A stretch of 64,000 nucleotides of DNA from a virus. Under the pieces are notes generated by a model. It worked only from the letters and a program-made list of their open reading frames with translations, was not told the origin of the DNA and searched no databases. The translations under genes were made by a program, and so were the position numbers. The DNA is taken from the IMG/VR virus record IMGVR_UViG_3300021440_000014, positions 108,011-172,010 of that record; one strand, given 5' to 3'. Shown here piece after piece: positions 29,187 to 41,678 of this stretch (position 1 is the stretch's first letter; each line of letters opens with the position of its first letter).

Positions 29187-29258
29187 TGCCTCCAATCAGA
29201 CTCGCACTGATATATTACGACTTATGAGATCGTCCCATTAACATTATGGTATAGAGGC
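29187..29258 (-). tRNA. tRNA-Met (CAT)
   Basis: Acceptor GCCTCTA/TGGAGGC, D-arm CCAT-AATGTTA-ATGG, anticodon arm ACGAT-CTCATAA-GTCGT, T-arm ATCAG-TGCGAGT-CTGAT. CCA is not encoded. The D-loop has one G only and T55 is G; 19-56 stays G-C. Confidence 0.85.
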
Positions 29259-29266
29259 TTCTATAA

Positions 29267-29845
29267 TCAATTTGGGTTAGTATGATGATCGTTTAATTCC
29301 GGTATAGAGCAATTAATAGGTTTAGCATCCATAATTGTCTTTATTTCCTCAAAAGAGTAAGGCTCGAAACTGTTTCCATCGACACCAACATCTAAAATTT
29401 TACCTAAAACCTTACCTTCCTTGCGGACTCCCGCCATTCCATAGTGGCTGTGTCCGCACAAGCACCATGCGGAATGATGTTTTTTGTTCCATGTAACTTG
29501 AGCATAATGGTTTAAAGTTATGTCTTGATCGTTAATTTTAATCTCATGATATCCTTTATGGGCTGAATAAAACTTATGACGATTCCTCCAAGTCAATTTA
29601 TCATGATTGCCTGAGACTAAAACAATCAAACCGTTCAGTCTTTGAAAGAACATGTCAAACTCCATATCGTTTCTTCCAAAGACAAAATCCCCCAAAAAAT
29701 ATGCTAAATCTTGTTTACCTACTTTTTTATTCCATCTTTCTATAATTGCTTCATTCATTTCTACAACATTCTTGAAGGGACGGTTAGAATAGCGCAAAAT
29801 GTTACTATGATTAAAATGGAAATCCGAACTGAAAAACACTTTCAT
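29267..29845 (-). CDS. Calcineurin-like metallophosphoesterase
   Basis: 192 aa. SDFHFNH, LGDFVFG, SGNHDK and CGHSHYG are the ordered metal-binding motifs of this superfamily. Size matches small phage and bacterial phosphoesterases (MPP type). Substrate unknown; could act on RNA-end phosphates. Confidence 0.85.
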   Translation of the reverse strand: MKVFFSSDFHFNHSNILRYSNRPFKNVVEMNEAIIERWNKKVGKQDLAYFLGDFVFGRNDMEFDMFFQRLNGLIVLVSGNHDKLTWRNRHKFYSAHKGYHEIKINDQDITLNHYAQVTWNKKHHSAWCLCGHSHYGMAGVRKEGKVLGKILDVGVDGNSFEPYSFEEIKTIMDAKPINCSIPELNDHHTNPN

Positions 29846-29891
29846 ATATATAATTCCATCTTAACATATTTTTATTTTCTGTCAAAGAAAA

Positions 29892-29984
29892 TCAAGATAC
29901 TTTCAATTTATACGGTATTTTATTCCTCCGCTCTATTTTTATGTCTTCACGACTCGCTATGACAGACGTTTTTATAGCGGGCAT
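29892..29984 (-). CDS. Possible 30-aa basic peptide
   Basis: MPAIKTSVIASREDIKIE..., ending KLKVS, preceded by AGGGAG 5 nt before the ATG, one of few Shine-Dalgarno-like sites here. Very short, so tentative. Confidence 0.25.
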   Translation of the reverse strand: MPAIKTSVIASREDIKIERRNKIPYKLKVS

Positions 29985-30083
29985 CGCCGCTCCCTTTTAT
30001 CAGGTTTTGTTCGCCTTATTTGGCTTCATGTGTTAATTATGTTATTGCTGCTGTAAGTATCTTACTCTTAATTACACTAAAAC

Positions 30084-30182
30084 TAGAAGCTGATTTACAG
30101 TTTACTCTGGGCACTTTTTGTGTGATTACCGTCACGATGAAGCCGGATTACCGGCGTTTATTTTTTTTGCTGTAAGCTTCTA
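30084..30182 (-). ncRNA. Structured RNA with 13-bp base stem
   Basis: TAGAAGC and TTACAG at the 5' side pair with CTGTAA and GCTTCTA at the 3' side, interrupted by a 4-nt bulge. The interior has GCCGG-TAAT-CCGGC. Just downstream of tRNA-Cys. Unassigned small RNA. Confidence 0.4.
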
Positions 30183-30188
30183 AAAATC

Positions 30189-30263
30189 TGGAAGCACGTA
30201 TCAGAATTGCACTGATCTATTCGATTTTGCAGATCGACGCCTAATCTACTCGGCCAACGCGCT
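30189..30263 (-). tRNA. tRNA-Cys (GCA)
   Basis: Acceptor AGCGCGT/ACGTGCT, T73 (typical of tRNA-Cys), CCA encoded. D-arm GCC-GAGTAGATTA-GGC, anticodon arm TCGAT-CTGCAAA-ATCGA, T-arm ATCAG-TGCAATT-CTGAT. Elbow AG/GC instead of GG/TC. Confidence 0.9.
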
Positions 30264-30451
30264 ATTAAATTGGTGACTAATAAATCATTATAGCTGCTAC
30301 CACACCCCAATATTAAAGTGTTTTTGCCTTATTTAAAGTGTCCTACACTCACTATAACTTACTTAAGTTGGTATCCCTTGACGGTTTTGCGCCGTCGTCT
30401 CGGACTTGAGAGGCCCGCGATTTACTATTAATCTAAAGGGACATTAAAATG
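30264..30451 (-). other. RNA-rich spacer, unresolved
   Basis: About 190 bp without a frame. Hairpins GACGG-CGCAAAA-CCGTC, AACTT-AAGT-AAGTT and GGTG...CACC are visible but no tRNA could be folded with confidence. Confidence 0.35.
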
Positions 30452-30805
30452 TCAATTTTCCCAAAATTTGTTTTCGTAATTTTCCATCTCTTTTCTCCAA
30501 TTCTGTTCGATTATAGCCATTTTATCGTCTAACTCTTTATTTCTTTTAACTATAATTTCAGGAGTTAGAGTTTTTGCGAATTTTACTGTTTCATTAAAAT
30601 CTAAACTTAGATAAGGATGCATTGCATCACTAAGTCTAGGATCTCCTGTAAAGAAAATTCCACTTCTAAAGAGTGCCCATTTGTCTTTCTCTTTGAATTT
30701 ATACTCTATACAGTAATATTTTGCATTGTAATGACTTACTCTTACTCTAAATTTATCTTGTATATTCTCTGGCTTTGCTTTGAATTTTTTAAAAAATTTG
30801 AACAT
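30452..30805 (-). CDS. Hypothetical protein
   Basis: 117 aa, basic N-terminus then a mixed fold (RVRVSHYNAKYYCIEYKFKEK). Not recognised. Starts directly downstream of tRNA-His. Confidence 0.5.
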   Translation of the reverse strand: MFKFFKKFKAKPENIQDKFRVRVSHYNAKYYCIEYKFKEKDKWALFRSGIFFTGDPRLSDAMHPYLSLDFNETVKFAKTLTPEIIVKRNKELDDKMAIIEQNWRKEMENYENKFWEN

Positions 30806-30808
30806 AAA

Positions 30809-30883
30809 TGGTCAGGTGGGTCGGTTACGCTCCGACTCAATTTCATTCACAGTGAAAGAGGCTACTATTACATCACGCACTTG
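30809..30883 (-). tRNA. tRNA-His (GTG), weak acceptor
   Basis: Anticodon arm TTTCA-CTGTGAA-TGAAA, T-arm GTCGG-AGCGTAA-CCGAC, CCA encoded. The acceptor CAAGTGC/CCACCTG has only five pairs and the D-stem is unclear. Elbow AG/GC. Confidence 0.7.
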
Positions 30884-30886
30884 TTT

Positions 30887-31261
30887 TTAATTATAAAACT
30901 CTACTTCAACCCCAAGCTTCTTAAAATTGTTCTTAATGGCTTTTTCTTTTTGTTCATCTGAGGTATTCTCGTTATCATTAATTTCCATTAAACGATTTGC
31001 AATTTTCGAATTTCCATTTAGACTGCACAGTTCAGGAAGCATATAAGCTTCGTTCTCTTTAACTAGGTCCGAAGGCTCGTATTTATTTTCAATATATTTT
31101 TTATTAATTCCTCGCGCCAATGAGTAAAACCCAAGGCAGCATTTCATACCTTTGCAGTCCAACAGTTCCGCTTCATAGCTAAAATCAGTATGCTTACCTT
31201 TTTGGAAGCGCATCCACTCTTTACGGTTAATTCTAAATTTCTTAATTGGAGATTTTTTCAT
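30887..31261 (-). CDS. Hypothetical protein
   Basis: 124 aa from the ATG at 31261 (MKKSPIKKFRINRKEW). Contains CKGMKCCLGFYSLARG, a pattern frequent in phage proteins of unknown role. A good promoter lies 7 nt upstream. Confidence 0.55.
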   Translation of the reverse strand: MKKSPIKKFRINRKEWMRFQKGKHTDFSYEAELLDCKGMKCCLGFYSLARGINKKYIENKYEPSDLVKENEAYMLPELCSLNGNSKIANRLMEINDNENTSDEQKEKAIKNNFKKLGVEVEFYN

Positions 31262-31268
31262 ATAGTAG

Positions 31269-31296
31269 AGATTAACACATTTTTGAAGAATGTCAA
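31269..31296 (-). promoter_or_regulatory. Sigma70-type promoter, leaderless start for 31261 gene
   Basis: Minus strand TTGACA, 16-nt spacer, TAATCT, then 7 nt to the ATG. Confidence 0.65.
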
Positions 31297-31550
31297 TTCG
31301 ATTCTCTATAGGGCGCAAACTGTAATTTGTTAGATTCAAATTTTAAATAATTAGAGTATTTTGAAATACCCAAATCAACAGTAACAGAATTAAAAGTATT
31401 GGCAGTTTCTTTACTTTCTAAAACTTCCATTCTTTTTTCCATTTCCCTAATTAAAGCCTTATTTATCCAATTCATTTCTATTAAAATGTAGGTAGAAGAA
31501 GCAAAAACTAATAAAGCCATTAAACTTAATGAAGTTTCGTATTTTATCAT
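31293..31550 (-). CDS. Small TM protein with coiled coil
   Basis: 85 aa: one membrane helix (LSLMALLVFASSTYILIEM) then a short coiled coil (LIREMEKRMEVLESKE). Not recognised. Confidence 0.5.
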   Translation of the reverse strand: MIKYETSLSLMALLVFASSTYILIEMNWINKALIREMEKRMEVLESKETANTFNSVTVDLGISKYSNYLKFESNKLQFAPYRESN

Positions 31551-31584
31551 ATTGACATTATCTATATTTTATCCATAAAGTCAA

Positions 31585-31612
31585 TAAAAAACGGCAGATT
31601 TCTCTGCCGTTC
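31585..31612 (-). terminator. Terminator after 31635 gene
   Basis: Minus strand ACGGCAGA-GAAA-TCTGCCGT then TTTTTT; a GNRA loop stem. Confidence 0.85.
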
Positions 31613-31634
31613 GCTAATATAATTGAATTTGCTA

Positions 31635-32303
31635 TTATCTAAATTTATAATCTACATTAATCGCAATATAATTATTTTTGCCTGTTACGTTTTGCGGCGT
31701 ATTGTAATTAATAAATGGAGAATCACTATATCCAGTATAAGAAATAAATCTCATTCTTGGCGAAGCGGCAGTGTTTAAATGAGAGCCGGAATGTAGAATT
31801 TTAGTTCCTATCTCGAAAAAGAGAGAATCTCCATCATTCGCCATTCCTGTTCCTACAATCCCATTAAAGTATTGTAGTCTATAGCCCTGAGAATCATATT
31901 TTGAAAAATGAGAGGTATCACTCTGATCGCCAGAATACAAAACTTTTCTTAAATTTCCGCTCTGGTCGCAAACTTTAATAACTAAAGAATTACAGTGCCC
32001 GCTATTTATACCTGTTGGGCCTTTTGGAATGAAATATCCAGTAAAAATACCAGAATTCAAAAATTGAGAGCCGCTAAATACTTTATTGTATTTAAATACT
32101 GATGCAATTATCCTTTTATTAATGTCCTGCCCTGTATTTACAGGATGAAAAATTAACCTCTCAACTCCCGTTGTCGTCGATGGACTTGAATAGCAATCGT
32201 ATTTTAAGTTTGCTCCACCTGTGTAATACCAAAAGCTGTTTGGCGCAGAATAATTTTCATTTCCGCTTATTAGATTTTCGGAAAAATATATTTTAGTGCT
32301 CAT
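31635..32303 (-). CDS. Possible virion structural protein
   Basis: 222 aa, beta-rich with many S, G, Y and N (FWYYTGGANLKYDCYSSPS...), no signal peptide. Compositionally like tail or fibre proteins and it has its own terminator. Not recognised by family. Confidence 0.45.
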   Translation of the reverse strand: MSTKIYFSENLISGNENYSAPNSFWYYTGGANLKYDCYSSPSTTTGVERLIFHPVNTGQDINKRIIASVFKYNKVFSGSQFLNSGIFTGYFIPKGPTGINSGHCNSLVIKVCDQSGNLRKVLYSGDQSDTSHFSKYDSQGYRLQYFNGIVGTGMANDGDSLFFEIGTKILHSGSHLNTAASPRMRFISYTGYSDSPFINYNTPQNVTGKNNYIAINVDYKFR

Positions 32304-32349
32304 ATCACTAATTAATACACTAACTCTTGAGTTTTATTCGTTTTTTTAA

Positions 32350-32424
32350 TGGCAGGCATGAAAGGACTTGCACCTTTTTATAATCGCTTCAGAGGCGATC
32401 CGATAACTATTCTCGCACATGCCA
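32350..32424 (-). tRNA. tRNA-Gln (CTG)
   Basis: Acceptor TGGCATG/CATGCCT with T1.T72 mismatch, G73 as in Gln, CCA encoded. D-arm CGA-GAATAGTTA-TCG, anticodon arm ATCGC-CTCTGAA-GCGAT, T-arm AAAGG-TGCAAGT-CCTTT. Elbow AG/GC. Confidence 0.88.
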
Positions 32425-32425
32425 A

Positions 32426-32677
32426 TCAAAAATTCTTCAAATAAGGTTTAATATGTTTTGGTGTTTTCTGGTTTATTAATTTAGGATTCGTTTCCAAAAT
32501 TAACTTTTGCCCACTTTTAGTTTTCTTGAGCTTTTTAAGAATTACTTCTGCTGTTAAATCGCACCCATCAATATGGATTTTACTTCCCTTTCTGTCGCTC
32601 GGATCTAATAACTGCATTGTTCGGGCGGCTCTATACAATTGATTCATCGCCCAATTTAGTAATTCTTCGTCATTCAT
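32426..32677 (-). CDS. Hypothetical protein
   Basis: 83 aa. NDEELLNWAMNQLYRAARTMQ is helical; KIHIDGCDLTAEVIL follows. Not recognised. Ends 2 nt after tRNA-Gln begins. Confidence 0.5.
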   Translation of the reverse strand: MNDEELLNWAMNQLYRAARTMQLLDPSDRKGSKIHIDGCDLTAEVILKKLKKTKSGQKLILETNPKLINQKTPKHIKPYLKNF

Positions 32678-32694
32678 AATTCACCTCAATATAT

Positions 32695-32895
32695 TTAACA
32701 CCAATCCGTTTTCCCTGTCAGCATATCCTTTAGTCTTTTCGCTGACTCTGCCGCGTCTTCTCTGGTTGGAATCCTTAGTCCAGCAAAGATACTTCCCTCT
32801 GGAAATGGCGTTAATCCTTCGTAAGGATTTTCTTCTGGAATATGAATCGGCTCCTTAGTAACCGAATCAATAAGTATTGTCTTATGTGTTTTCAT
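32695..32895 (-). CDS. Hypothetical protein
   Basis: 66 aa, proline-rich centre (EENPYEGLTPFPEGSIF). Not recognised. Overlaps the upstream gene. Confidence 0.5.
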   Translation of the reverse strand: MKTHKTILIDSVTKEPIHIPEENPYEGLTPFPEGSIFAGLRIPTREDAAESAKRLKDMLTGKTDWC

Positions 32896-33124
32896 TTTTA
32901 CTCTCTATTTTAACGCATTCGTATTTGTCTGTTAGTAAGCTAGTTATATTTGAAATTAACTCTGAGCGAACAACCCATTCATCAATTTCAATTCCGCTAG
33001 GTGGGTTTTTTATAAAGTCTGCCTCAACAATCTGCGCAGCCTCAATAACAGAATCCGCCAAGATTCTATAATTCATTCTCTCTATCTTGCTTATATCTTT
33101 AGAACATATTTTATCTGTTTCCAC
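32882..33124 (-). CDS. Hypothetical protein
   Basis: 80 aa, mainly helical, NYRILADSVIEAAQIVEADF. Not recognised. Confidence 0.5.
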   Translation of the reverse strand: METDKICSKDISKIERMNYRILADSVIEAAQIVEADFIKNPPSGIEIDEWVVRSELISNITSLLTDKYECVKIESKNENT

Positions 33125-33169
33125 GATATATAACCCAAAACTTTTGCTATATTTATATTCTTTCGTAAA

Positions 33170-33658
33170 TCAAATACTATAATCTTCTCCTTTAAATTGG
33201 TAATCTTTAATAAACTCAACCACTGAAGGTTCCAGTTCTACTCTATGACATATAGGATAAGAATACTCTATATTATGAGATTTTACCCCATTGAATACTA
33301 ATTTTTTTCCCTTGTCATTAGTTTTCATGTATCTATAGATTTCGTTTATCCATCTTTTACATCTTTCGACTTTATCAGAAGAATTCGCAAACTGAATCCA
33401 ATTTTCCCCATGATTTACTCCATAACCCTCGGAAAGGCATTCAAACACTCCTTGTAAATACGCGATTTTCTTTTCAATCGTATCGAAAAACTCTTCTTTG
33501 AGTTTACCAGTTATACGTCCTGCCGTAAATCCTTCTCGGCCCGGTGGACTCCAATTAAATATATCGTAGTAATCTGGCTTTTCTTTACTGTTATCATGGA
33601 AAGGAGTATCGTAAAAATCTCCCGCCTGAGCCGCTGATTTGATTGCTTTGACATTCAT
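33170..33658 (-). CDS. Hypothetical protein
   Basis: 162 aa, KKIAYLQGVFECLSEGYG and a charged C-terminus. Not recognised. Confidence 0.5.
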   Translation of the reverse strand: MNVKAIKSAAQAGDFYDTPFHDNSKEKPDYYDIFNWSPPGREGFTAGRITGKLKEEFFDTIEKKIAYLQGVFECLSEGYGVNHGENWIQFANSSDKVERCKRWINEIYRYMKTNDKGKKLVFNGVKSHNIEYSYPICHRVELEPSVVEFIKDYQFKGEDYSI

Positions 33659-33677
33659 AAATTAGAAACACCCAACC

Positions 33678-33857
33678 TTAATCACGTTTAATAAGGTAGT
33701 CAGTCATTTCTGCTTCGGTGGTGCGGCTGTTAGAGTCCCGTCCGGGGTAGTTGTTAAACTTAGTCTTCATTCTAAATATATCATATTGAAGAAAGCCAAT
33801 TATTAGCCACATTATGATTAATAAAATTACTAATACTTTAAATTTTAGATCTTTCAT
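33678..33857 (-). CDS. Small single-TM protein (59 aa)
   Basis: KVLVILLIIMWLIIGFLQYD is a membrane helix; the soluble tail reads YPGRDSNSRTTEAEMTDYL. It fills the stretch between two other small genes, and the hairpins seen in this DNA are therefore coding. Confidence 0.55.
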   Translation of the reverse strand: MKDLKFKVLVILLIIMWLIIGFLQYDIFRMKTKFNNYPGRDSNSRTTEAEMTDYLIKRD

Positions 33858-33903
33858 GTTAAATTAATTACCAAACATTCGTCGCCGCATATTTTCTATA
33901 TTG

Positions 33904-34160: not shown

Positions 34161-34241
34161 TGGCCCCGGCGATAGGATTTTCACCTACATTTTCAGATAA
34201 TTACGATTAAAACCTTCAAAGGGTTCCTCGTCTACACCGGA
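34161..34241 (-). tRNA. tRNA-Gln (TTG), D-loop relocated
   Basis: Acceptor TCCGGTG/CGCCGGG, G73 and CCA. Directly after TA comes a stem ACGA that pairs with TCGT located after the anticodon arm GAACC-CTTTGAA-GGTTT. The 14-nt linker AATTATCTGAAAAT then leads to T-arm GTAGG-TGAAAAT-CCTAT. No D-arm in the usual place. The linker AT and T-loop GA match the altered elbow code. Confidence 0.7.
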
Positions 34242-34310: not shown

Positions 34311-34382
34311 TGGGTTAGTTCGGTACTGCCCCGAACTCTCTCAGCTTAAGAGGCTGGACTTCGCTTTCAAAGTTTCTAACCC
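34311..34382 (-). tRNA. tRNA-Lys (CTT)
   Basis: Acceptor GGGTTAG/CTAACCC, D-arm ACTT-TGAAAGCG-AAGT, anticodon arm CAGC-CTCTTAA-GCTG, T-arm TTCGG-GGCAGTA-CCGAA. CCA not encoded. Elbow AG/GC. Confidence 0.85.
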
Positions 34383-34470: not shown

Positions 34471-34551
34471 TGGTGGGCAAGGAGGGATTTGAACCCTCAT
34501 TTTATTCCAATTATGCACCCATCGCTTAGAAGGCGCGGCCATTACAAGCCC
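34471..34551 (-). tRNA. tRNA-Arg (TCT), D-loop relocated
   Basis: Acceptor GGGCTTG/CTTGCCC (two T.T mismatches), A73, CCA. Anticodon loop CTTCTAA on a short CGC/GCG stem follows TAATGGC; ATG..C pairs with G.GCAT after the arm. Then AATTGGAATAAAAT and a canonical T-arm GAGGG-TTCAAAT-CCCTC. GG in the linker matches T-loop TC. Confidence 0.65.
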
Positions 34552-34833: not shown

Positions 34834-34909
34834 TGGTGCTGCCGAAAGGAATCTCACCTTCAGTCTTCTCCTTCGTAGGGAGTGGCTTTAATAATTTAGC
34901 TACGACAGC
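34834..34909 (-). tRNA. tRNA-Arg (ACG)
   Basis: Acceptor GCTGTCG/CGGCAGC, A73, CCA. D-arm GCT-AAATTATTAA-AGC, anticodon arm CTCC-CTACGAA-GGAG, T-arm GAAGG-TGAGATT-CCTTT. Elbow AT/GA (T19-A56). Confidence 0.85.
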
Positions 34910-35257: not shown

Positions 35258-35337
35258 TGGTGCATCTGATAGGATTTGAACCTACATTATTCCAATTATA
35301 CGCTAAACTCTTTAGGAAAGAGTGCTATTACAGATGC
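35258..35337 (-). tRNA. tRNA-Arg (CCT), D-loop relocated
   Basis: Perfect acceptor GCATCTG/CAGATGC, A73, CCA. TAATAGC is followed at once by anticodon arm ACTCT-TTCCTAA-AGAGT; ATAGC pairs with GC(G)TAT on the 3' side. Then AATTGGAATAAT and canonical T-arm GTAGG-TTCAAAT-CCTAT. Clearest example of the moved D-loop: GG sits 3' of the anticodon arm. Confidence 0.75.
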
Positions 35338-35341: not shown

Positions 35342-35418
35342 TGGTTCGGGATACACAGCCTTTCACTGTTGCACAACGTAGTCATGAGCTACGGCGTCTA
35401 TACTTGCGCCAATCCCAA
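35342..35418 (-). tRNA. tRNA-Met or Ile2 (CAT)
   Basis: Acceptor TTGGGAT/ATCCCGA, A73, CCA. D-arm GCG-CAAGTATAGA-CGC, anticodon arm CGTAG-CTCATGA-CTACG, T-arm ACAG-TGAAAGG-CTGT. Elbow AT/GA. Initiator, elongator or Ile cannot be told apart by sequence alone. Confidence 0.8.
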
Positions 35419-35842: not shown

Positions 35843-35930
35843 TGGTGGTGCCGGTTGGATCTGCCCCAACTATTCCATAAGAATTACGAGATTTACAGTC
35901 TCGCGCCTGATCTAATTTGGCTTCGTCACC
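35843..35930 (-). tRNA. tRNA-Tyr (GTA)
   Basis: Class II. Acceptor GGTGACG/CGGCACC (one A.G), D-arm GCC-AAATTAGATCA-GGC, anticodon arm CGAGA-CTGTAAA-TCTCG, variable arm ATTC-TTAT-GAAT, T-arm GTTGG-GGCAGAT-CCAAC, A73, CCA. Elbow AG/GC. Confidence 0.88.
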
Positions 35931-36399: not shown

Positions 36400-36475
36400 T
36401 GGCGAGCTATGAGGGAGTCCCACCCTCTTAATTTCCGCAGACAACGGAATGATTCCAGTCTTCATCTTATAGCCC
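36400..36475 (-). tRNA. tRNA-Asp (GTC)
   Basis: Acceptor GGGCTAT/ATAGCTC, G73 typical for Asp, CCA. D-arm GAT-GAAGACTGGA-ATC, anticodon arm TTCCG-TTGTCTG-CGGAA, T-arm GAGGG-TGGGACT-CCCTC. T-loop GG pairs with D-loop AC (C19-G56). Confidence 0.85.
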
Positions 36476-36781: not shown

Positions 36782-37087
36782 TTATTCTTTATCTAAAATA
36801 AAACTCTCTTCTTCGTTTTTACCAACAAACTCAATACAATCATTCAGTAATTCAATTAGTTGCTCTTTCTTAAGCTTTAATGTAACCCATCCATTCAAAT
36901 GTTTTGTATCTATGGCTAATACTGTTATTTTACAGCCGTCTTGCTCTTCGAAATCTAATAAAGCCGCCGTTACGAATCCAGATAAACCAAAGCTTTTAGA
37001 ATTTTTATTAAATAATAAACCCATTCCTCTCAATTGCTCGAAGCTCTCAAAAGAGTTGATTATATCTGATATTTTCTTTTTTTTCAT
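36782..37087 (-). CDS. Hypothetical protein
   Basis: 101 aa. KITVLAIDTKHLNGWVTLKLKKEQLIELL at the C-terminal half suggests a small alpha/beta fold. Not recognised. Confidence 0.5.
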   Translation of the reverse strand: MKKKKISDIINSFESFEQLRGMGLLFNKNSKSFGLSGFVTAALLDFEEQDGCKITVLAIDTKHLNGWVTLKLKKEQLIELLNDCIEFVGKNEEESFILDKE

Positions 37088-37130
37088 GTAAAAGATTACT
37101 ACATTTTTTTAAAAAAATCAAGAGGATTTC

Positions 37131-37360
37131 ACACGTAGTTCCTAATTCAGCGTCCGGTTACGCTCCGAATCTTCTGAGCCGCGCCAGCTTGCTTCTATCA
37201 CAACCCGCTAGTTAGTCTATCTCTCATTTCTAGAAATATTCCTGCGCTGTTTTTACGCCGACAGGTAGCGGCTTGGGATCACTTCTACCAAGCTCATGGA
37301 CTTCATGAATATTACATTGTCCACTTTTTCAACCGATTTCACGGTTAAGATTTTTAAATT
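37131..37360 (-). other. RNA-rich region, partly tRNA-like
   Basis: A T-arm TTCGG-AGCGTAA-CCGGA of the AG/GC class lies at about 37150-37170 but its tRNA body could not be completed. Further hairpins: GCTTGG...CCAAGC, CCTG...CAGG, ATTTCTAGAAAT. Confidence 0.35.
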
Positions 37361-37364
37361 CTAT

Positions 37365-37423
37365 TAGACAGATGGACCTCGAACCCATTTCGACACATAT
37401 CGAACAGCCAGCCTTGCTGTCTA
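37365..37423 (-). ncRNA. 59-nt mini tRNA-like RNA
   Basis: Perfect acceptor TAGACAG/CTGTCTA and a canonical T-arm ATGGG-TTCGAGG-TCCAT, but only 28 nt replace the D-arm and anticodon arm: CAAGGCTGGCTG and hairpin TTCGA-TATGTG-TCGAA. No standard 7-nt anticodon loop. Confidence 0.5.
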
Positions 37424-37426
37424 AAA

Positions 37427-37486
37427 TTAATTTGCTCCTCAGTGCTTGCTTTTGCACGTTGCCGCTTTTGACTTGGAGCATTTAGC
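37427..37486 (-). other. Hairpin TGCTCC/GGAGCA
   Basis: 6-bp stem with inner GTGC...GCAC; between mini tRNA-like RNA and tRNA-Ser. Confidence 0.3.
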
Positions 37487-37490
37487 TAAA

Positions 37491-37577
37491 TGGCGGATAA
37501 GTTAGGTGCTGCCCCCAATTCCCGTAGGAACGATGAGTTTTCAAGACTCTCACGAAAGCTGTTTCGTTTACTTATCC
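37491..37577 (-). tRNA. tRNA-Ser (TGA)
   Basis: Acceptor GGATAAG/CTTATCC, G73, CCA. D-arm CGAAA-CAGC-TTTCG, anticodon arm GAGT-CTTGAAA-ACTC, variable arm TTCC-TAC-GGAA, T-arm TTGGG-GGCAGCA-CCTAA. The 5' end overlaps the HNH gene stop by 10 bp. Elbow AG/GC. Confidence 0.85.
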
Positions 37578-38332
37578 TTTAAAATTTTATATCTTTTTTG
37601 CCAAAAGCCGGGATAAAACCATTTTATACCAAGACTTTTTAAATGCTTTCTTAATCCTGTATGGCTACAACCTAATTCATCCTTTATTTTTTCCAAGGAT
37701 TTTTCTTGAACCATTTTTTCTAAAATTTCCTTATCTGGCCAATTAATAATCTTTTGAATTTTACGAGTCTCTATCCCTTCGGCTATTAATCTTTTCATAA
37801 CTCCAGAAGGAGAACATCCAACAATTTTCGCAATTTGTATGGTAGATTTCTTTTGTATTAAATATAAATCTTTAAGATCAAATTTAGACCAATCGTATTT
37901 GCCTTTCAAACTCAAAGCGCAAAACGTAGAACAAGTTTTATTCCAAAAAGGTTTTTCTTTATTACAAATAGGACAATTATTTATCATTGACTTAGATTTA
38001 TCAATTAATTCTATCCTTTTGTAGTCTACAAAAGATTCATTAAATCTACTTATGGAATCTGGAATAATTCTTAAATTATCGTGGACTTCTCTATGACAAT
38101 TAGAACATAATAATACGCATTTTCTTAATTCTATTACTAAATCTTGCCAATTTTTAGGGTTTGCTCTTATAGAACCAAAGCTAAACTCTTTTTCGCTGGG
38201 ATCTAAATGATGTAGTTCTAATGCGTTATTACATTTATTATAATCACAAGTTCCGCATTTACCGCCAAATGCATCTATTATTCTTTGTTTGCTTCTTTTA
38301 CGCCAATTTTTAACATCTTCCGCTCTGCTCAT
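37568..38332 (-). CDS. HNH endonuclease overlapping tRNA-Ser
   Basis: 254 aa. N-terminal HNH: GKCGTCDYNKCNNALELHHLDP, LCSNCHREVH (zinc-bound). A CPICNKEKPFWNKTCSTFC finger follows, then two helix-turn-helix repeats (IQIAKIVGCSPSGVMKRLI; KIKDELGCSHTGLRKHLKSL). Its last codons K-D-K and stop lie in the acceptor of tRNA-Ser. Confidence 0.85.
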   Translation of the reverse strand: MSRAEDVKNWRKRSKQRIIDAFGGKCGTCDYNKCNNALELHHLDPSEKEFSFGSIRANPKNWQDLVIELRKCVLLCSNCHREVHDNLRIIPDSISRFNESFVDYKRIELIDKSKSMINNCPICNKEKPFWNKTCSTFCALSLKGKYDWSKFDLKDLYLIQKKSTIQIAKIVGCSPSGVMKRLIAEGIETRKIQKIINWPDKEILEKMVQEKSLEKIKDELGCSHTGLRKHLKSLGIKWFYPGFWQKRYKILKDK

Positions 38333-38368
38333 ACTTTATGTTACACTTATCATGTAACATATAGAAAT

Positions 38369-38444
38369 TGGCTGCTAGAACTGGATTCAAACCAGTATCG
38401 ACGATCTTAACAGGATCGGGAATTATCAATTATTCGATCTAGCA
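38369..38444 (-). tRNA. tRNA-Asn (GTT)
   Basis: Acceptor TGCTAGA/TCTAGCA, G73, CCA. D-arm GAAT-AATTGATA-ATTC, anticodon arm CGATC-CTGTTAA-GATCG, T-arm ACTGG-TTTGAAT-CCAGT. Elbow GA/TT, i.e. A19-T56 instead of G-C. Confidence 0.9.
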
Positions 38445-38451
38445 TTTAAAT

Positions 38452-38531
38452 TGGTGCAAGTGGTGGGTAACGCTCCCACACGAATAGTCTGGTTAAAAGC
38501 CAGTTGGACGTACTTTGGTACCTTCACTTGC
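38452..38531 (-). tRNA. tRNA-Lys (TTT)
   Basis: Acceptor GCAAGTG/CACTTGC, A73, CCA. D-arm GTAC-CAAA-GTAC region, anticodon arm CTGG-CTTTTAA-CCAG, T-arm GTGGG-AGCGTTA-CCCAC. Elbow AG/GC. Confidence 0.85.
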
Positions 38532-38540
38532 ATAAATAAC

Positions 38541-38595
38541 ATGAATGTTTTGAAGTCCGTCTAAACTTCGTCGGACGGGACACATTATCATTCAC
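38541..38595 (-). ncRNA. Small RNA with possible pseudoknot
   Basis: GTGAATG/CATTCAT closes it; inside GTCCG pairs with CGGAC while GAAG in the loop can pair with the following CTTC, an H-type pseudoknot. Between tRNA-Lys and tRNA-Ile. Confidence 0.4.
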
Positions 38596-38600
38596 TAAAA

Positions 38601-38674
38601 TGGTAGCCTATGCCGGTAACGCTCCGACGAAGCAATCTTATCAGGATTGTATTATACTTTTTAATTAATAGGCT
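38601..38674 (-). tRNA. tRNA-Ile (GAT)
   Basis: Acceptor AGCCTAT/ATAGGCT, A73, CCA. D-arm ATT-AAAAAGTAT-AAT, anticodon arm CAATC-CTGATAA-GATTG, T-arm GTCGG-AGCGTTA-CCGGC. Elbow AG/GC. Confidence 0.9.
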
Positions 38675-38685
38675 ATAAAAATTAA

Positions 38686-38786
38686 TTGAGCACTAAAGCG
38701 AATACCCAAAAGGTCTAACTTTAGAATATTCAATTGGAGAGACTCGTCCTTCATTAGCCGCCGCCTTCGATGGGCACGTTGCTCAA
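38686..38786 (-). ncRNA. 101-nt RNA closed by TTGAGCA/TGCTCAA
   Basis: 7-bp closing stem and inner CTAAAG...CTTTAG stem with 20-nt loop. No recognisable anticodon arm. Between tRNA-Ile and tRNA-Leu. Confidence 0.4.
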
Positions 38787-38788
38787 AT

Positions 38789-38874
38789 TGGTAGCCGTAA
38801 AAGGACTTGCACCTTCAAGTATTAGAAGATTTTAAGTCTCCCGGTTCTTCGTTTCCCTTTCAATACATACGGCC
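38789..38874 (-). tRNA. tRNA-Leu (TAA), unusual variable helix
   Basis: Acceptor GGCCGTA/TACGGCT, A73, CCA. Anticodon arm GGAGA-CTTAAAA-TCTTC, T-arm GAAGG-TGCAAGT-CCTTT. No class II variable arm; instead GTAT after the acceptor can pair with ATAC in the variable region. Elbow AG/GC. Confidence 0.8.
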
Positions 38875-38875
38875 A

Positions 38876-39082
38876 TTAAAGATCTAAAAGTTTCAAAGCT
38901 TTAAGAAGTAACTTACTTCCCTTTTTCTTTTTCTCTCTATCAGTCAGACTTTCTTTTAGTTTCGACTTAGGAAGATATTCGTCTCCAGCCCAATTATAAA
39001 TTTTTGCCTTTTCCCAATTTGTAGCTTCTTCTTTTAATATTTCTATAACAATCTTTTTTATTTTAACTTCTAGTTGGTTCAT
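38876..39082 (-). CDS. Hypothetical basic protein
   Basis: 68 aa, lysine-rich, helical; LTDREKKKKGSKLLLKALKLL. Not recognised. Inserted between tRNA-Leu genes. Confidence 0.45.
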   Translation of the reverse strand: MNQLEVKIKKIVIEILKEEATNWEKAKIYNWAGDEYLPKSKLKESLTDREKKKKGSKLLLKALKLLDL

Positions 39083-39086
39083 AAAA

Positions 39087-39170
39087 TGGTCGCCATGACA
39101 GGAATCGCACCTGCAAAACTTCAGTTTTTGAAACTGGATGCTGTCCTATTCGCAATTAAGTCACATGGCG
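39087..39170 (-). tRNA. tRNA-Leu (CAA), unusual variable helix
   Basis: Acceptor CGCCATG/CATGGCG, A73, CCA. D-arm TGC-GAATAGGACA-GCA preceded by an extra ACTTAAT; ACTT can pair with AAGT in the variable region. Anticodon arm CAGT-TTCAAAA-ACTG, T-arm GCAGG-TGCGATT-CCTGT. Confidence 0.82.
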
Positions 39171-39177
39171 TTTTAAA

Positions 39178-39252
39178 TGGTAGGGTTAGCCGGATCTGCC
39201 CCGCGCCTCTATAGGATGAAAGCCTATTATGCTTCTACTGCACCATAACCCC
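39178..39252 (-). tRNA. tRNA-Glu (TTC)
   Basis: Acceptor GGGGTTA/TAACCCT, A73, CCA. D-arm GTGC-AGTAGAA-GCAT, anticodon arm ATAGG-CTTTCAT-CCTAT, T-arm with one bulged G and loop GGCAGAT. Elbow AG/GC. Confidence 0.87.
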
Positions 39253-39259
39253 TGAAAAA

Positions 39260-39380
39260 CTAGATACATTTTTTTGCTTGTCGGACGTTTTGCCACTAAA
39301 CTACCCACGTCAATGACGTGGACACGAATCGAACGTGCGCTTTCCGATTGGATTTGCTTTTTGTCTGCTGGATGTATCTA
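39260..39380 (-). ncRNA. Inside-out tRNA in a TAGATAC hairpin (copy a)
   Basis: Outer stem TAGATACAT/ATGTATCTA. Inside, in 5'-3' order: TCCAA, TCGGA, AAGC, T-arm GCACG-TTCGATT-CGTGT, CCACGTC, ATT, GACGTGG, D-arm GTTT-AGTGGCA-AAAC, G, TCCGA. So 3' half precedes 5' half and the acceptor ends are joined by an ATT triloop. TCCGA/TCGGA makes a perfect anticodon stem and TCCAA would supply a TCC (Gly) anticodon. GG matches the canonical T-loop. Confidence 0.55.
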
Positions 39381-39384
39381 AAAA

Positions 39385-39459
39385 TGGTAGCCCGTGAAGG
39401 AATCGCACCCTCTCTTCTTCCTTGTAAGGGAAGCTCGCTCCTGTTACAATCAACGGGCT
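39385..39459 (-). tRNA. tRNA-Val (TAC)
   Basis: Acceptor AGCCCGT/ACGGGCT, A73, CCA. Anticodon arm CTTCC-CTTACAA-GGAAG, T-arm GAGGG-TGCGATT-CCTTC. D-arm weak (ATTG...CGAG) with AG. Elbow AG/GC. Confidence 0.88.
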
Positions 39460-39464
39460 ATAAA

Positions 39465-39539
39465 TGGTCAGCACGAAAGGTAACGCTCCTTCTTGAACTT
39501 GATCCCAAATCAAGTGCCTCACTTTTAGGCTACGTGCTG
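39465..39539 (-). tRNA. tRNA-Pro (TGG)
   Basis: Acceptor CAGCACG/CGTGCTG, A73, CCA. D-arm GCCT-AAAAGTG-AGGC, anticodon arm CTTGA-TTTGGGA-TCAAG with G37, T-arm GAAGG-AGCGTTA-CCTTT. Elbow AG/GC. Confidence 0.92.
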
Positions 39540-39684
39540 TATAAAGTTTCAGGTCTTTCCTTGTGTCAATCATCATCGGGTTGGTTTCCAACTTACGGAG
39601 CGATTTGCCGCTAGATGTTCTAAATTATTAGAGTATGCAGCGATTATGCTATCATACCCTTCTAAGAGTTTTTATTACTCAAGA
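39540..39684 (-). other. Spacer with hairpins, no gene
   Basis: 145 bp. GTTGG-AAA-CCAAC, AGCG-GCAAAT-CGCT and GGGTATG...CATACTC hairpins are visible; no tRNA could be folded. Confidence 0.3.
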
Positions 39685-39756
39685 TGGTGGACCTGTCGGA
39701 TACTGCCTCCGAACGAAAATCTTGCAAGGATTCCCTTATGCCTTCATAACAAGCCC
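39685..39756 (-). tRNA. tRNA-Ala (TGC)
   Basis: Acceptor GGGCTTG/CAGGTCC (two wobbles), A73, CCA. D-arm ATG-AAGG-CAT, anticodon arm GAATC-CTTGCAA-GATTT, T-arm TCGGA-GGCAGTA-TCCGA. Elbow AG/GC. Confidence 0.87.
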
Positions 39757-39761
39757 ATAAA

Positions 39762-39974
39762 TTACTTATAACTATTTCCCAACTTCTCCCTCCAATTTTC
39801 ATTATAATTTTGATGCGCTTCACATTGAGCTTTTGCTTGCTCTAAAGTGATAGCTGGCTGTTTTTTGACAGCCTCCATTGTATCAATTAACCATTTAGGA
39901 GGAGGAGGAATCCTATTCATTAACTCTTTAAATCTTCTAAGATGTTTTCTTTTTCTTTTTTCGAAATTGATCAT
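39762..39974 (-). CDS. Hypothetical basic protein
   Basis: 70 aa, basic helix (EKRKRKHLRRFKELMNRI) then PPPPKW. Not recognised. Confidence 0.45.
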   Translation of the reverse strand: MINFEKRKRKHLRRFKELMNRIPPPPKWLIDTMEAVKKQPAITLEQAKAQCEAHQNYNENWREKLGNSYK

Positions 39975-40170
39975 AAATTGTGGACTGGAAGGATACCCTA
40001 AATCCTTATTCTAGGCTTCGTAGGATTACTACGTCCTCGCTTTGGTGCAGCCCCATAAAAATTCGTTGGATTTCACTTTCGATGGCTCAATTGATTTCGC
40101 GTTACTCCCGCGCACCATCTGCGTTCCCTGTAGCTCTCAGGTCTATCAACAAGAACAAAACCTACTTCGT
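39975..40170 (-). other. RNA-rich region, partly tRNA-like
   Basis: Contains a T-arm AGGAT-TTAGGGT-ATCCT (T55 A56) and upstream CGTAG-TAATC-CTACG with GT, matching the GT/TA elbow class, but the acceptor is imperfect (GGGCTG/CAGTCC). Also CGCG-GGAGTAA-CGCG and GATGG...CCATC stems. Confidence 0.35.
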
Positions 40171-40240
40171 CAACAAATTGGATTTGCGCCAACTTCCTCG
40201 GCGTTTGCCGATGCTTTACTACATAAGCTATTTATGTTGC
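40171..40240 (-). ncRNA. tRNA-like RNA with tetraloop instead of anticodon
   Basis: D-arm GCTT-ATGTAGTA-AAGC and T-arm GTTGG-CGCAAAT-CCAAT carry the AG/GC elbow, but the anticodon stem TCGGC/GCCGA is capped by AAAC only. Acceptor is short (CAACA/TGTTG). Could be a decoy that keeps the elbow but cannot decode. Confidence 0.45.
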
Positions 40241-40263
40241 CTTCTGTTTTTATTCTCTAAAAT

Positions 40264-40331
40264 TGGTGGACCTTATCGCCGCCCTTGCGTCCGAATTTCA
40301 CGGAGTCTCCCCGAAGGAAGTCCTTATTAAA
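40264..40331 (-). ncRNA. tRNA-like RNA with UUCG hairpin
   Basis: GGACTT pairs with AAGGTCC and the end is ACCA. Inside: CTTCC-TTCG-GGGAG, TCCG-TGAAATT-CGGA and CGC-AAGGGCG-GCG. No normal D- or T-arm. Confidence 0.35.
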
Positions 40332-40422
40332 TGGCGGAAGCATAGAGAATTGCACTCCAACCGGCTTTTGACCGGACAATTTTAGCAAAATTGCGTAACA
40401 ATCTAATATTTACCTTACTTCC
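40332..40422 (-). tRNA. tRNA-Ser (GCT)
   Basis: Class II. Acceptor GGAAGTA/TGCTTCC, G73, CCA. D-arm GTAA-ATATTAGATTG-TTAC, anticodon arm CAATT-TTGCTAA-AATTG, variable arm CCGG-TCAAAAG-CCGG, T-arm TGGAG-TGCAATT-CTCTA. Elbow AG/GC. Confidence 0.92.
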
Positions 40423-40432
40423 AATTAAATAA

Positions 40433-40519
40433 TGGAGCCAACGACAGGTATCGCGCCTGCATACACCTTTCGGTTCTCGCTTTACAAAAGCGGTGAATTA
40501 CTTGTCTATCCACGTTGGC
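40433..40519 (-). tRNA. tRNA-Thr (TGT) with long variable arm
   Basis: Acceptor GCCAACG/CGTTGGC, T73, CCA. Anticodon arm CGCT-TTTGTAA-AGCG, variable hairpin ACC-GAAA-GGT (unusual for Thr), T-arm GCAGG-CGCGATA-CCTGT. Elbow AG/GC. Confidence 0.85.
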
Positions 40520-40526
40520 ATCAAAT

Positions 40527-40608
40527 TGGTGCTCCAACCCCGACTTGCACAGGGACGCTTTCGCACGAAGTTCTAAGCTTCGCATGTCTTCTATTTCATC
40601 ATTGGAGC
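40527..40608 (-). tRNA. tRNA-Leu (TAG)
   Basis: Acceptor GCTCCAA/TTGGAGC, A73, CCA. D-arm ATG-AAATAGAAGA-CAT, anticodon arm CGAAG-CTTAGAA-CTTCG, variable hairpin with GAAA loop, T-arm CCCTG-TGCAAGT-CGGGG. Elbow AG/GC. Confidence 0.9.
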
Positions 40609-40615
40609 TAAAAAT

Positions 40616-40688
40616 TGGTTGCGGTCGCGAGAATTAAACTCGTCCTTAAGCTTATGAAACTTACGTGCAATCATTACACTTCCCCGCA
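40616..40688 (-). tRNA. tRNA-Met or Ile2 (CAT), weak acceptor
   Basis: D-arm GTG-TAATGATTG-CAC, anticodon arm TAAGT-TTCATAA-GCTTA, T-arm CGAG-TTTAATT-CTCG, CCA. Acceptor TGCGG pairs with CCGCA, the last two pairs fail. Elbow GA/TT. Confidence 0.75.
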
Positions 40689-40702
40689 TTTTAAAATTAA
40701 AG

Positions 40703-40766
40703 CTAGATAGTTGGGATTTTCAATTCCCTATTTTGTGAAAATAAATTTTATACTGCACCTATCTAA
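40703..40766 (-). repeat. TAGATAC hairpin family, copy b
   Basis: Minus strand TAGATAG ... CTATCTA closing a ~50-nt loop that starts GTGCAGTAT; inner TATTTT-CAC-AAAATA hairpin and GGGA...TCCC. Confidence 0.6.
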
Positions 40767-40777
40767 ACTATGAAAAC

Positions 40778-40837
40778 CTAGATCCATTTTTTGTCATTTG
40801 AATAATGAGTTTTTTAATTTTTGCTGTTCGGATCTAT
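40778..40837 (-). repeat. TAGATAC hairpin family, copy c
   Basis: Minus strand TAGATCC ... GGATCTA; interior begins GAACAGCAAAAA. Stem bases covary with the other copies. Confidence 0.6.
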
Positions 40838-40841
40838 AAAA

Positions 40842-40916
40842 TGGCCCGACAAGTTGGTAACGCTCCAACCTCCACTGTTCTTCAGACAGTTGCTAATCTA
40901 TCTCAGCTATTGGCGG
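40842..40916 (-). tRNA. tRNA-Phe (GAA)
   Basis: Acceptor CCGCCAA/TTGTCGG (one C.T), G73, CCA. D-arm GCT-GAGATAGATT-AGC, anticodon arm ACTGT-CTGAAGA-ACAGT, T-arm GTTGG-AGCGTTA-CCAAC. Elbow AG/GC. Confidence 0.88.
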
Positions 40917-40920
40917 AAAA

Positions 40921-40995
40921 TGGAGCACACGGAGGATTTTGAAACCTCGACGTTCACGTTGGAAGCGTGACATTCTGCCTCTGAATTACGTGTGC
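40921..40995 (-). tRNA. tRNA-Gly (TCC)
   Basis: Acceptor GCACACG/CGTGTGC, T73, CCA. D-arm ATTC-AGAGGCA-GAAT, anticodon arm TCACG-CTTCCAA-CGTGA, T-arm GAGG-(T)TTCAAAA-CCTC. One of the few with canonical GG/TC. Confidence 0.9.
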
Positions 40996-41004
40996 TTAAA
41001 TTGA

Positions 41005-41056
41005 CTAGATACGCTTTTTTCCATAAACAAGGATTTTGACTGCTGCACGTATCTAA
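41005..41056 (-). repeat. TAGATAC hairpin family, copy d
   Basis: Minus strand TAGATACG ... CGTATCTA (8 bp); interior begins TGCAGCAGTC. Confidence 0.6.
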
Positions 41057-41065
41057 AAACTTTTC

Positions 41066-41434
41066 TTAAATATTTTTTGGCGTTCTGTGTGATAGTGTAA
41101 AAAAAGCTTTTCTCACCAAGCCTTCCCTTACTTCTACTTCACAAGTTCCAATAAACTCATAAGATTTATAACCTGATTGCGAAGATCCGTCAATATCTAA
41201 AAACGTCCCTTTCGCATAAATTTTTGTTAAACCTGTTTTTTTAGGATTTACAGTTACATTATAATTTGAACCATCAAAATTTGACGATAGTATTTCTATT
41301 ACTTCTTCGTCTTCTACTGTCCAAATGGCATTCTCATTTTCATTAATGAAAACTATATCGTTTTCGGCTGTCATGAATTTTACTTGCAAAACTGCCGTTT
41401 CATCCTTGGCGATTGTAAACTTTTGAATATCCAT
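41066..41434 (-). CDS. Ig-like (BIG2-type) protein
   Basis: 122 aa. NAIWTVEDEEVIEIL, VNPKKTGLTKIYAKG and FIGTCEVEV resemble bacterial Ig-like group 2 domains of phage surface or tail decoration proteins. No signal peptide. Sits alone among tRNA genes. Confidence 0.5.
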   Translation of the reverse strand: MDIQKFTIAKDETAVLQVKFMTAENDIVFINENENAIWTVEDEEVIEILSSNFDGSNYNVTVNPKKTGLTKIYAKGTFLDIDGSSQSGYKSYEFIGTCEVEVREGLVRKAFFTLSHRTPKNI

Positions 41435-41457
41435 GTAATATATTACACTTTAAATAA

Positions 41458-41517
41458 CTAGATACTTATTTTTCCTTTAACAGAGGAGTTTTTTTATTTT
41501 TTGCTGTTCGTATCTAA
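41458..41517 (-). repeat. TAGATAC hairpin family, copy e
   Basis: Minus strand TAGATAC ... GTATCTA; interior begins GAACAGCAAAAAA, nearly as in copy c. Confidence 0.6.
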
Positions 41518-41519
41518 AA

Positions 41520-41596
41520 TGGCACGGCGAACGAGAGTCGAACTCGTCTATTGCTGGTTTGGAATCAGTTGCTTCACTCTACTTAGCTATCGCCGT
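41520..41596 (-). tRNA. tRNA-Trp (CCA)
   Basis: Acceptor ACGGCGA/TCGCCGT, G73, CCA. D-arm GCT-AAGTAGAGTGA-AGC, anticodon loop TTCCAAA on CTG/CAG, T-arm ACGAG-TTCGACT-CTCGT. T-loop is canonical but the D-loop lacks GG: an exception to the elbow rule. Confidence 0.85.
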
Positions 41597-41603
41597 ATAA
41601 AAT

Positions 41604-41678
41604 TGGAGCGGGTAGCGGAATTTGCGTCCGCTTTGAAAAATTGGCAATTTCTCGTAATACTACATATACCATACCCGC
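41604..41678 (-). tRNA. tRNA-Gly (GCC)
   Basis: Acceptor GCGGGTA/TACCCGC, T73, CCA. D-arm GTA-TATGTAGTAT-TAC, anticodon arm AGAAA-TTGCCAA-TTTTT, T-arm GCGGA-CGCAAAT-TCCGC. Elbow AG/GC. First tRNA of the main array after its promoter. Confidence 0.9.

What the first reader, a model, noticed from the sequence alone, without database searches (positions are those of the whole stretch)
29187..41678. tRNA elbow recoded: D-loop 18-19 and T-loop 55-56 change together
In nearly all cellular tRNAs G18G19 in the D-loop contacts T55C56 in the T-loop. Of 31 hand-folded tRNAs here only three keep GG/TC (Gly-TCC and the two rearranged Arg). Most have AG with GC (Cys, Gln-CTG, Lys, Tyr, Glu, Pro, Ala, Ser, Ile, Val, Phe, Leu, Gly-GCC and others). 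Others have AT with GA (Arg-ACG, Met 35342, Gln-TTG), GA with TT (Asn, Met 40616), AC with GG (Asp) and GT with TA (RNA at 5404). Position 19-56 stays Watson-Crick in every class, which is strong covariation. Trp is an exception. G55 cannot be made into pseudouridine, and A/G at 54 cannot become T. This may let phage tRNAs escape host enzymes or elbow-recognising nucleases.
Basis: partly seen in the sequence, partly recalled or inferred. Interest (0 to 1): 0.95.

Follow-up and report, generated by a model that had tools for sequence, protein, structure and literature searches.

The report
tRNAs with a rewired elbow
A bacterial virus carries about 30 transfer RNA genes, most of which have swapped the near-universal bases that hold the tRNA's elbow together for a different but matching set, and the same swap turns up in many other viruses and in some bacteria as the only copy of an essential tRNA, so this hallmark of all tRNAs has a working alternative.

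Summary
On the minus strand of 29187-41678 lie about 30 tRNA genes, most with encoded CCA. Most carry G55 with A18 instead of U55 with G18, and 19-56 stays Watson-Crick. Among 1,861 distinct tRNAs from related viral and bacterial loci, 18-55 and 54-58 covary as strongly as weak cloverleaf stem pairs. G55-C56 goes with A18-G19 in 103 of 104 unselected viral tRNAs outside the window; U56 goes with A19 in 23/24, G56 with C19 in 4/4 (z about 40).

The likely structure is a switch from the U55 turn (G18-Psi55) to a composite GNRA loop (G55-N56-R57 plus A18), a T-loop variant known from riboswitches. R57 is a purine in 774/774 G55 tRNAs. Recoded tRNAs keep charging identity elements (Ala G3-U70 25/25), and are the only tRNA-Thr(GGU) found in a SAR11 genome and the only tRNA-Trp and tRNA-Cys in an Uhrbacteria genome, so they almost certainly translate. 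Verrucomicrobia chromosomes carry extra arrays that are mostly recoded, several beside Ro60/TROVE genes.

The parts
41608..41678 (-). tRNA-Gly(GCC), A18G19 / C54-G55C56
41524..41596 (-). tRNA-Trp(CCA), U55C56 but no G18G19: exception
40925..40995 (-). tRNA-Gly(TCC), canonical G18G19 / U55C56
40846..40916 (-). tRNA-Phe(GAA), AG / AGCGUUA loop
40620..40688 (-). tRNA-Met(CAT), G18A19 / U55U56
40531..40608 (-). tRNA-Leu(TAG), AG / UGCAAGU
40437..40519 (-). tRNA-Thr(TGT), AG / CGCGAUA
40336..40422 (-). tRNA-Ser(GCT), long variable arm, AG / UGCAAUU
39689..39756 (-). tRNA-Ala(TGC) with G3-U70, AG / GGCAGUA (short D-loop)
39469..39539 (-). tRNA-Pro(TGG), AG / AGCGUUA
39389..39459 (-). tRNA-Val(TAC), AG / UGCGAUU
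39181..39252 (-). tRNA-Glu(TTC), AG / GGCAGAU
39091..39170 (-). tRNA-Leu(CAA), UGCGAUU T-loop
38793..38874 (-). tRNA-Leu(TAA), UGCAAGU T-loop
38605..38674 (-). tRNA-Ile(GAT), AG / AGCGUUA
38456..38531 (-). tRNA-Lys(TTT), AG / AGCGUUA
38373..38444 (-). tRNA-Asn(GTT), G18A19 / U55U56
37495..37577 (-). tRNA-Ser(TGA), AG / GGCAGCA
36404..36475 (-). tRNA-Asp(GTC), A18C19 / G55G56
35847..35930 (-). tRNA-Tyr(GTA), long variable arm, AG / GGCAGAU
35347..35417 (-). tRNA-Met(CAT), A18U19 / G55A56 (boundary approximate)
34838..34909 (-). tRNA-Arg(ACG), A18U19 / G55A56
34312..34382 (-). tRNA-Lys(CTT), AG / GGCAGUA
34165..34241 (-). tRNA-Gln(TTG)-like, G55A56 T-loop
32354..32424 (-). tRNA-Gln(CTG), AG / UGCAAGU
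30813..30883 (-). tRNA-His(GTG), AG / AGCGUAA
30373..30442 (-). tRNA-Glu(CTC), AG / CGCAAAA
30193..30263 (-). tRNA-Cys(GCA), AG / UGCAAUU
29188..29258 (-). tRNA-Met(CAT), G55C56 but D-loop AATGUUA: exception
24590..25028 (-). tmRNA (canonical T-loop)
   Evidence: Rfam RF00023, E = 1.2e-37
44227..45807 (-). Ro-like RNA-binding protein (phrog_850, DUF2828 + DUF7788)
13121..14116 (-). RNA ligase (phrog_968, PF09414)

Best explanation
These are translation-competent tRNAs whose elbow has switched to an alternative T-loop/D-loop docking. In the usual elbow U55 (pseudouridine) makes a U-turn and meets G18, and C56 pairs with G19. In the recoded elbow G55-N56-R57 of the T-loop and A18 of the D-loop form a composite GNRA-type fold (A18-G55 in place of G18-U55), while 19-56 remains a freely exchangeable Watson-Crick pair and 54-58 takes one of several matching pairs. 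Shown: covariation, purine-57 rule, preserved stems, CCA and charging identity elements, occurrence as the only copy of essential tRNAs in cells. Inferred: the GNRA geometry, absence of Psi55, and that the phage uses the array to keep translation running with tRNAs that do not depend on host elbow-modifying enzymes, alongside tmRNA, an RNA ligase and a Ro-like protein.
For: Unambiguous 7-nt D-loops: GC with AG 90/91, TC with GG 254/257, TT with GA 7/7. After removing every tRNA that matched a search pattern, and the window: GC-AG 103/104, TT-GA 23/24, GG-AC 4/4, TG-GC 2/2; over all unselected tRNAs z is about 40 even when shuffled within anticodons, and 54-58 ranks 19th and 18-55 20th of 2,415 column pairs, among the stems. 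Purine 57 in 774/774 G55 tRNAs. The UGNRA loop with an outside A forming a composite GNRA fold is described for riboswitches (PMC2258182). Identity elements kept: Ala G3-U70 25/25, Ser long arm and G73 36/36, Asn G73 41/41, Asp G73 32/32, Cys U73 32/33. Sole isoacceptors found in cells: SAR11 Thr-GGU, Uhrbacteria Trp and Cys.
Against: No structure, expression or charging data exist for any of them. Sole-copy status in SAR11 and Uhrbacteria rests on draft assemblies. A few tRNAs do not fit (Trp and Met 29258 in the window; some cellular Ala, Leu and Gln copies). The GA-AT class is weak outside the window (2/12 overall). A54-U58 is not an obvious substitute for the U54-A58 reverse-Hoogsteen pair.
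Confidence: 0.8

Rival explanations
1. Selected evasion: the elbow was changed so that host tRNases, toxins or modification enzymes that read T54-Psi55-C56 no longer act on phage or array tRNAs.
For: G55 removes the Psi55 substrate and non-U54 removes the m5U54 substrate. Arrays of near-complete sets exist in phages and as extra sets in Verrucomicrobia that also hold about 47 dispersed, higher-scoring tRNAs, next to Ro60/TROVE or RNA ligase, as expected of a backup set. A T-loop-cleaving tRNase is known (PMC9086364).
Against: Also present as single housekeeping tRNAs in SAR11 and Patescibacteria, where escape makes little sense. Many phages recode only one or two of about 20 tRNAs (median 9%), which would not protect translation. 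Documented phage-defence tRNases mostly cut the anticodon loop (own knowledge).
Confidence: 0.25
2. Relaxed constraint: where elbow modification is missing or does not matter, the two structurally equivalent elbow solutions drift into each other, so recoding is nearly neutral.
For: No TruB, TrmFO or TrmA hit above cut-off in four Patescibacteria genomes, no TrmFO in SAR11 or Verrucomicrobia genomes. All four Watson-Crick types occur at 19-56. 39 of 58 anticodons have at least two G55 and two U55 members.
Against: Verrucomicrobia and SAR11 do have TruB. The near-total recoding of whole arrays (cell-array median 94%) is not what neutral drift predicts. The switch needs two coupled changes through a weaker intermediate.
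Confidence: 0.3
3. They are tRNA-like ligands or decoys (for example Y-RNA-like partners of the Ro-type protein), not tRNAs for translation.
For: Ro/TROVE genes lie beside the arrays in the window, in Streptomyces phage Mildred21 and in Verrucomicrobia.
Against: Amino-acid identity elements, discriminator bases and most CCA ends are kept; sole-copy housekeeping tRNAs have the same elbow.
Confidence: 0.08
4. Artefact of free choice of positions 18-19 or of searching with recoded patterns.
For: D-loop length varies, so 18-19 can be ambiguous; two of the scans used recoded patterns.
Against: 7-nt D-loops leave no choice and give the cleanest result; removing all pattern-matched tRNAs and shuffling within anticodons leaves z about 40.
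Confidence: 0.02

Closest known systems
Canonical elongator tRNA (TPsiC elbow, G18-Psi55, G19-C56, T54-A58)
   Same: Cloverleaf, CCA end, anticodon, identity elements, 19-56 Watson-Crick pair, purine 57
   Different: 18-55 is A-G instead of G-U; 54-58 often A-U, G-G, C-A or C-G; cannot carry Psi55
UGNRA loop / lonepair triloop with outside A (TPP riboswitch and others; PMC2258182)
   Same: Second loop base G, purine fourth base, intercalated outside A completing a composite GNRA
   Different: Here it is the T-loop of tRNAs and the outside A is D-loop residue 18
Eukaryotic tRNA-Ala and initiator tRNA with A54/A58 (PMC7566577, PMC7912444)
   Same: Natural variation at 54-58 in a functional tRNA
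   Different: No 18-55 recoding is reported there; PMC7566577 states such pairs are not seen in bacteria or archaea
Anabaena 26-gene trn operon (PMC10272220)
   Same: Extra, clustered tRNA set beside the housekeeping set; co-regulated with the RNA ligase gene rtcB
   Different: Elbow sequence of that operon could not be checked here; no Ro gene reported there
Streptomyces phage Mildred21 tRNA cluster (MF155946)
   Same: Ro-like protein, tmRNA, RNA ligase and polynucleotide kinase with about 35 tRNAs; one His-GTG and one Phe-GAA copy are recoded
   Different: Most of its tRNAs are canonical

Membership tests
Functional tRNA | Four-arm cloverleaf with paired stems | tested here: met
   stem pairs head the covariation list
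Functional tRNA | CCA end and amino-acid identity elements | tested here: met
   Encoded CCA in most; Ala G3-U70 25/25 and discriminators kept
Functional tRNA | Charged and used by ribosomes | not testable with these tools
   Only indirect: sole copies of essential tRNAs in cells
Canonical TPsiC elbow | G18-U55 with G19-C56 | tested here: not met
   In the window only Gly-TCC keeps it in standard form; the two rearranged Arg also carry GG and UUC
Canonical TPsiC elbow | Watson-Crick 19-56 tertiary pair | tested here: met
   Met in classes GC-AG, TT-GA, GG-AC, TG-GC; exceptions Trp and Met 29258
UGNRA-type T-loop with composite GNRA | G at loop position 2, purine at position 4, outside A | tested here: met
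   57 purine in 774/774; A18 with G55 in 103/104 unselected viral GC tRNAs
UGNRA-type T-loop with composite GNRA | Sheared A-G contact in three dimensions | not testable with these tools
   No structure of a G55 tRNA at hand
Y RNA / YrlA (Ro60 ligand) | Match to the YrlA family model | tested here: not met
   Only one hit, 22.9 bits against a cut-off of 69, E = 2.1, between tRNAs
Stress-inducible extra tRNA operon (Anabaena trn type) | Silent under normal conditions and induced by translational stress | not testable with these tools
   No expression data; only the clustered, extra-set arrangement is shared

The most novel reading that the evidence does not exclude
A second, GNRA-type tRNA elbow underlies a parallel, Ro60-linked emergency tRNA set shared by large phages and Verrucomicrobia, which translates with tRNAs that elbow-reading enzymes, and possibly toxins, cannot recognise.
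Probability: 0.25. Interest if true: 0.93.

Novelty: new variant of a known kind. Interest (0 to 1): 0.83.

Why it matters
G18-Psi55 and G19-C56 are textbook invariants of tRNA. A covarying alternative, found as apparently sole-copy essential tRNAs in bacteria and as whole arrays in phages and Verrucomicrobia, shows the elbow can be built in another way and separates what the ribosome and processing enzymes need (a stacked 19-56 pair) from what they do not (Psi55, T54). It gives a natural test set for the role of the most conserved tRNA modification, explains why annotation programs miss many phage tRNAs (ARAGORN finds 98% of canonical but 29% of G55, non-U54 tRNAs), and points to an undescribed pairing of Ro60 genes with recoded tRNA arrays.

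Tried and rejected
Nearest named relatives of the window: no megablast match in phages; the Ro-like protein finds only remote phages. BLAST with one window tRNA gave noise; pooled recoded tRNAs found Streptomyces phages of the Mildred21/Jay2Jay type and pelagiphages. The hypothesis that all recoding lineages lack TruB was rejected: SAR11 and Verrucomicrobia have it. The phage record itself has no TruB hit. The Anabaena delta plasmid is not held under the accession tried, and a DOI I tried for the paper on that cryptic operon is not held. Searches for prior reports of A18/G55 tRNAs found none in the open-access library, which does not cover subscription journals. The Pseudoalteromonas/Shewanella hits did not fold as tRNAs. 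A scan for the rearranged Arg type found nothing.
Full report
What is there. The window is C1:108011-172010 of a 172,010-base virus record. ARAGORN reports 10 tRNAs on the minus strand between 29186 and 41596; Rfam's tRNA model adds several. Most end in an encoded CCA.

The elbow. The T-loops fall into classes: UGCRANU, AGCGUNA, GGCAGNN, CGCRANN (all G55C56), plus UGGGACU (Asp), UGAGAUU (Arg-ACG), UUUGAAU and UUUAAUU (Asn, Met), and UUC in Gly-TCC, Trp and two rearranged Arg. The matching D-loop dinucleotide is present in 23 of 26 foldable cases (p = 1e-4 by shuffling). Real exceptions are Trp and the Met at 29258; Ala 39756 fits only with a shortened D-loop register.

Beyond the window. From these and the window I extracted 1,171 distinct viral tRNAs. 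Where the D-loop has 7 nt, so that 18-19 cannot be chosen freely, 55-56 = GC goes with 18-19 = AG in 90 of 91, TC with GG in 254 of 257, TT with GA in 7 of 7. A second scan, of one genome for each of 84,980 bacterial and archaeal species, added 690 tRNAs. To remove selection by the search patterns I dropped every tRNA matching either pattern: GC-AG 103/104, TT-GA 23/24, GG-AC 4/4, TG-GC 2/2, TA-GT 6/7 in viral tRNAs without the window. Over all unselected tRNAs the number of predicted partners exceeds shuffles by about 40 standard deviations, also when shuffling within each anticodon. In a mutual-information ranking of all 2,415 column pairs, 54-58 and 18-55 come 19th and 20th, directly after 18 stem pairs and ahead of 15-48 and 8-14.

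Structure. With G55, position 57 is a purine in 774 of 774 tRNAs, and 18 is A. [quoted passage not shown] G55-N56-R57 with A18 fits that description, so I infer that the U-turn elbow has been exchanged for a GNRA-type elbow. Position 54-58 has its own set of alternatives (U-A, A-U, G-G, C-A, A-A, C-G), and base 60 is A in most loops that lack U54. PMC7566577 reports A54/A58 in eukaryotic tRNA-Ala and states it is not seen in bacteria or archaea.

Function. Recoded tRNAs keep what synthetases read: Ala G3-U70 in 25/25, long variable arm in all 36 Ser and 17/18 Tyr, G73 in 41/41 Asn, 32/32 Asp and 36/36 Ser, U73 in 32/33 Cys. Cells rely on them. In a 1.3-Mb SAR11 genome the only tRNA-Thr(GGU) found is recoded (AATAGUA / AGCGUAA) while 27 others are canonical; an identical copy in another such genome sits among metabolic genes (asparagine synthase, dicarboxylate symporter, glutamate synthase), and the same tRNA recurs in about 16 marine alphaproteobacterial genomes. 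In a 1.2-Mb Uhrbacteria genome with about 43 tRNAs, the only tRNA-Trp and the only tRNA-Cys are recoded, Thr-CGU too, and Leu-CAA has G18C19 with U55G56. UGG codons can hardly be read otherwise, so this elbow must work in translation, with the caveat that these assemblies are drafts.

Arrays. Verrucomicrobia genomes carry clusters of 8-26 tRNAs, mostly recoded (median of 41 cell arrays 94%). In G010 the array is on a 450-kb contig, about 1.5 kb from a TROVE/Ro60 gene, and the genome has about 47 further dispersed tRNAs, so the array is an extra set. TROVE is detected in 9 of 15 array-bearing genomes, and in 1 of 14 control genomes. The window phage has a Ro-like protein 2.5 kb from its array, an RNA ligase and a tmRNA; Streptomyces phage Mildred21 has the same partners and a few recoded tRNAs. 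Pelagiphage HTVC008M has one unannotated recoded tRNA-Gly(ACC). The window phage and L072, L096 and L023 are extreme; the median viral array has 9% recoded tRNAs.

Why. Three readings remain. Evasion of elbow-reading enzymes or nucleases fits the extra arrays, but not single housekeeping tRNAs. Relaxation fits Patescibacteria, where TruB, TrmFO and TrmA gave no hit above cut-off in four genomes, and the lack of TrmFO in SAR11 and Verrucomicrobia, but both of the latter have TruB. A backup tRNA set tied to Ro60 and RNA ligases fits the neighbourhoods and resembles the stress-induced Anabaena trn operon (PMC10272220). Sequence data cannot decide between them. The shown part is the covarying, apparently translation-competent alternative elbow; the reason for it is inference.

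Limits. No expression, structure or charging data. The literature search covers open-access papers only. Completeness of the draft genomes is not given. The cell set is enriched for array-bearing loci by the search pattern, so frequencies in cells are not estimates of prevalence.

Noticed in passing
window 35262-35337 (-) and 34475-34551 (-): Two Arg tRNA-like genes (CCT, TCT) have the anticodon arm directly after the acceptor 5' strand and a D-arm-like AUAAUUGGAAUAA segment after it, before a canonical UUC T-arm: arms in swapped order. No exact pattern match in viral contigs.
   Followed up: partly
window 39256-39384 (-): A hairpin TTTAGATACAT/ATGTATCTAG encloses what reads as a circularly permuted tRNA: T-arm, acceptor 3', ATT, acceptor 5', D-arm with GG, and the two halves of an anticodon stem at its ends.
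   Followed up: partly
window 41455-41520, 41000-41062, 40778-40838, 40699-40770, 30078-30186 (-): Repeated hairpin elements between the tRNAs with the motif TTTAGA-N6-CAGCA (some copies diverged) and a closing complementary stem ending TCTAG; 4 exact motif hits in the window against 0.06 expected. Also single hits in L021, L025, L081, L084.
   Followed up: partly
window 43278-44237 (+): LAGLIDADG homing endonuclease gene on the opposite strand between the tRNA array and the Ro-like gene.
   Followed up: no
window 37380-37440 (-): A roughly 55-nt tRNA-like segment (GACAG...CTGTC) with a T-arm and an anticodon-like arm but no D-arm and no CCA.
   Followed up: no
L153 2254-4119, L190 3827-5293, L149 6156-7754, L166, L224, L239: TROVE/Ro60 genes beside recoded tRNA arrays on Verrucomicrobia contigs.
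   Followed up: partly
L315 1501-1570 (Pelagibacter phage HTVC008M, KC465899): Unannotated tRNA-Gly with anticodon ACC and a recoded elbow between cobS and the S21 gene.
   Followed up: partly
window 5402-5518 (-) and about 5527-5680 (-): A 117-nt tRNA-like RNA without CCA (29.4 bits) and just upstream a canonical T-arm with CCA whose 5' part was not resolved.
   Followed up: no
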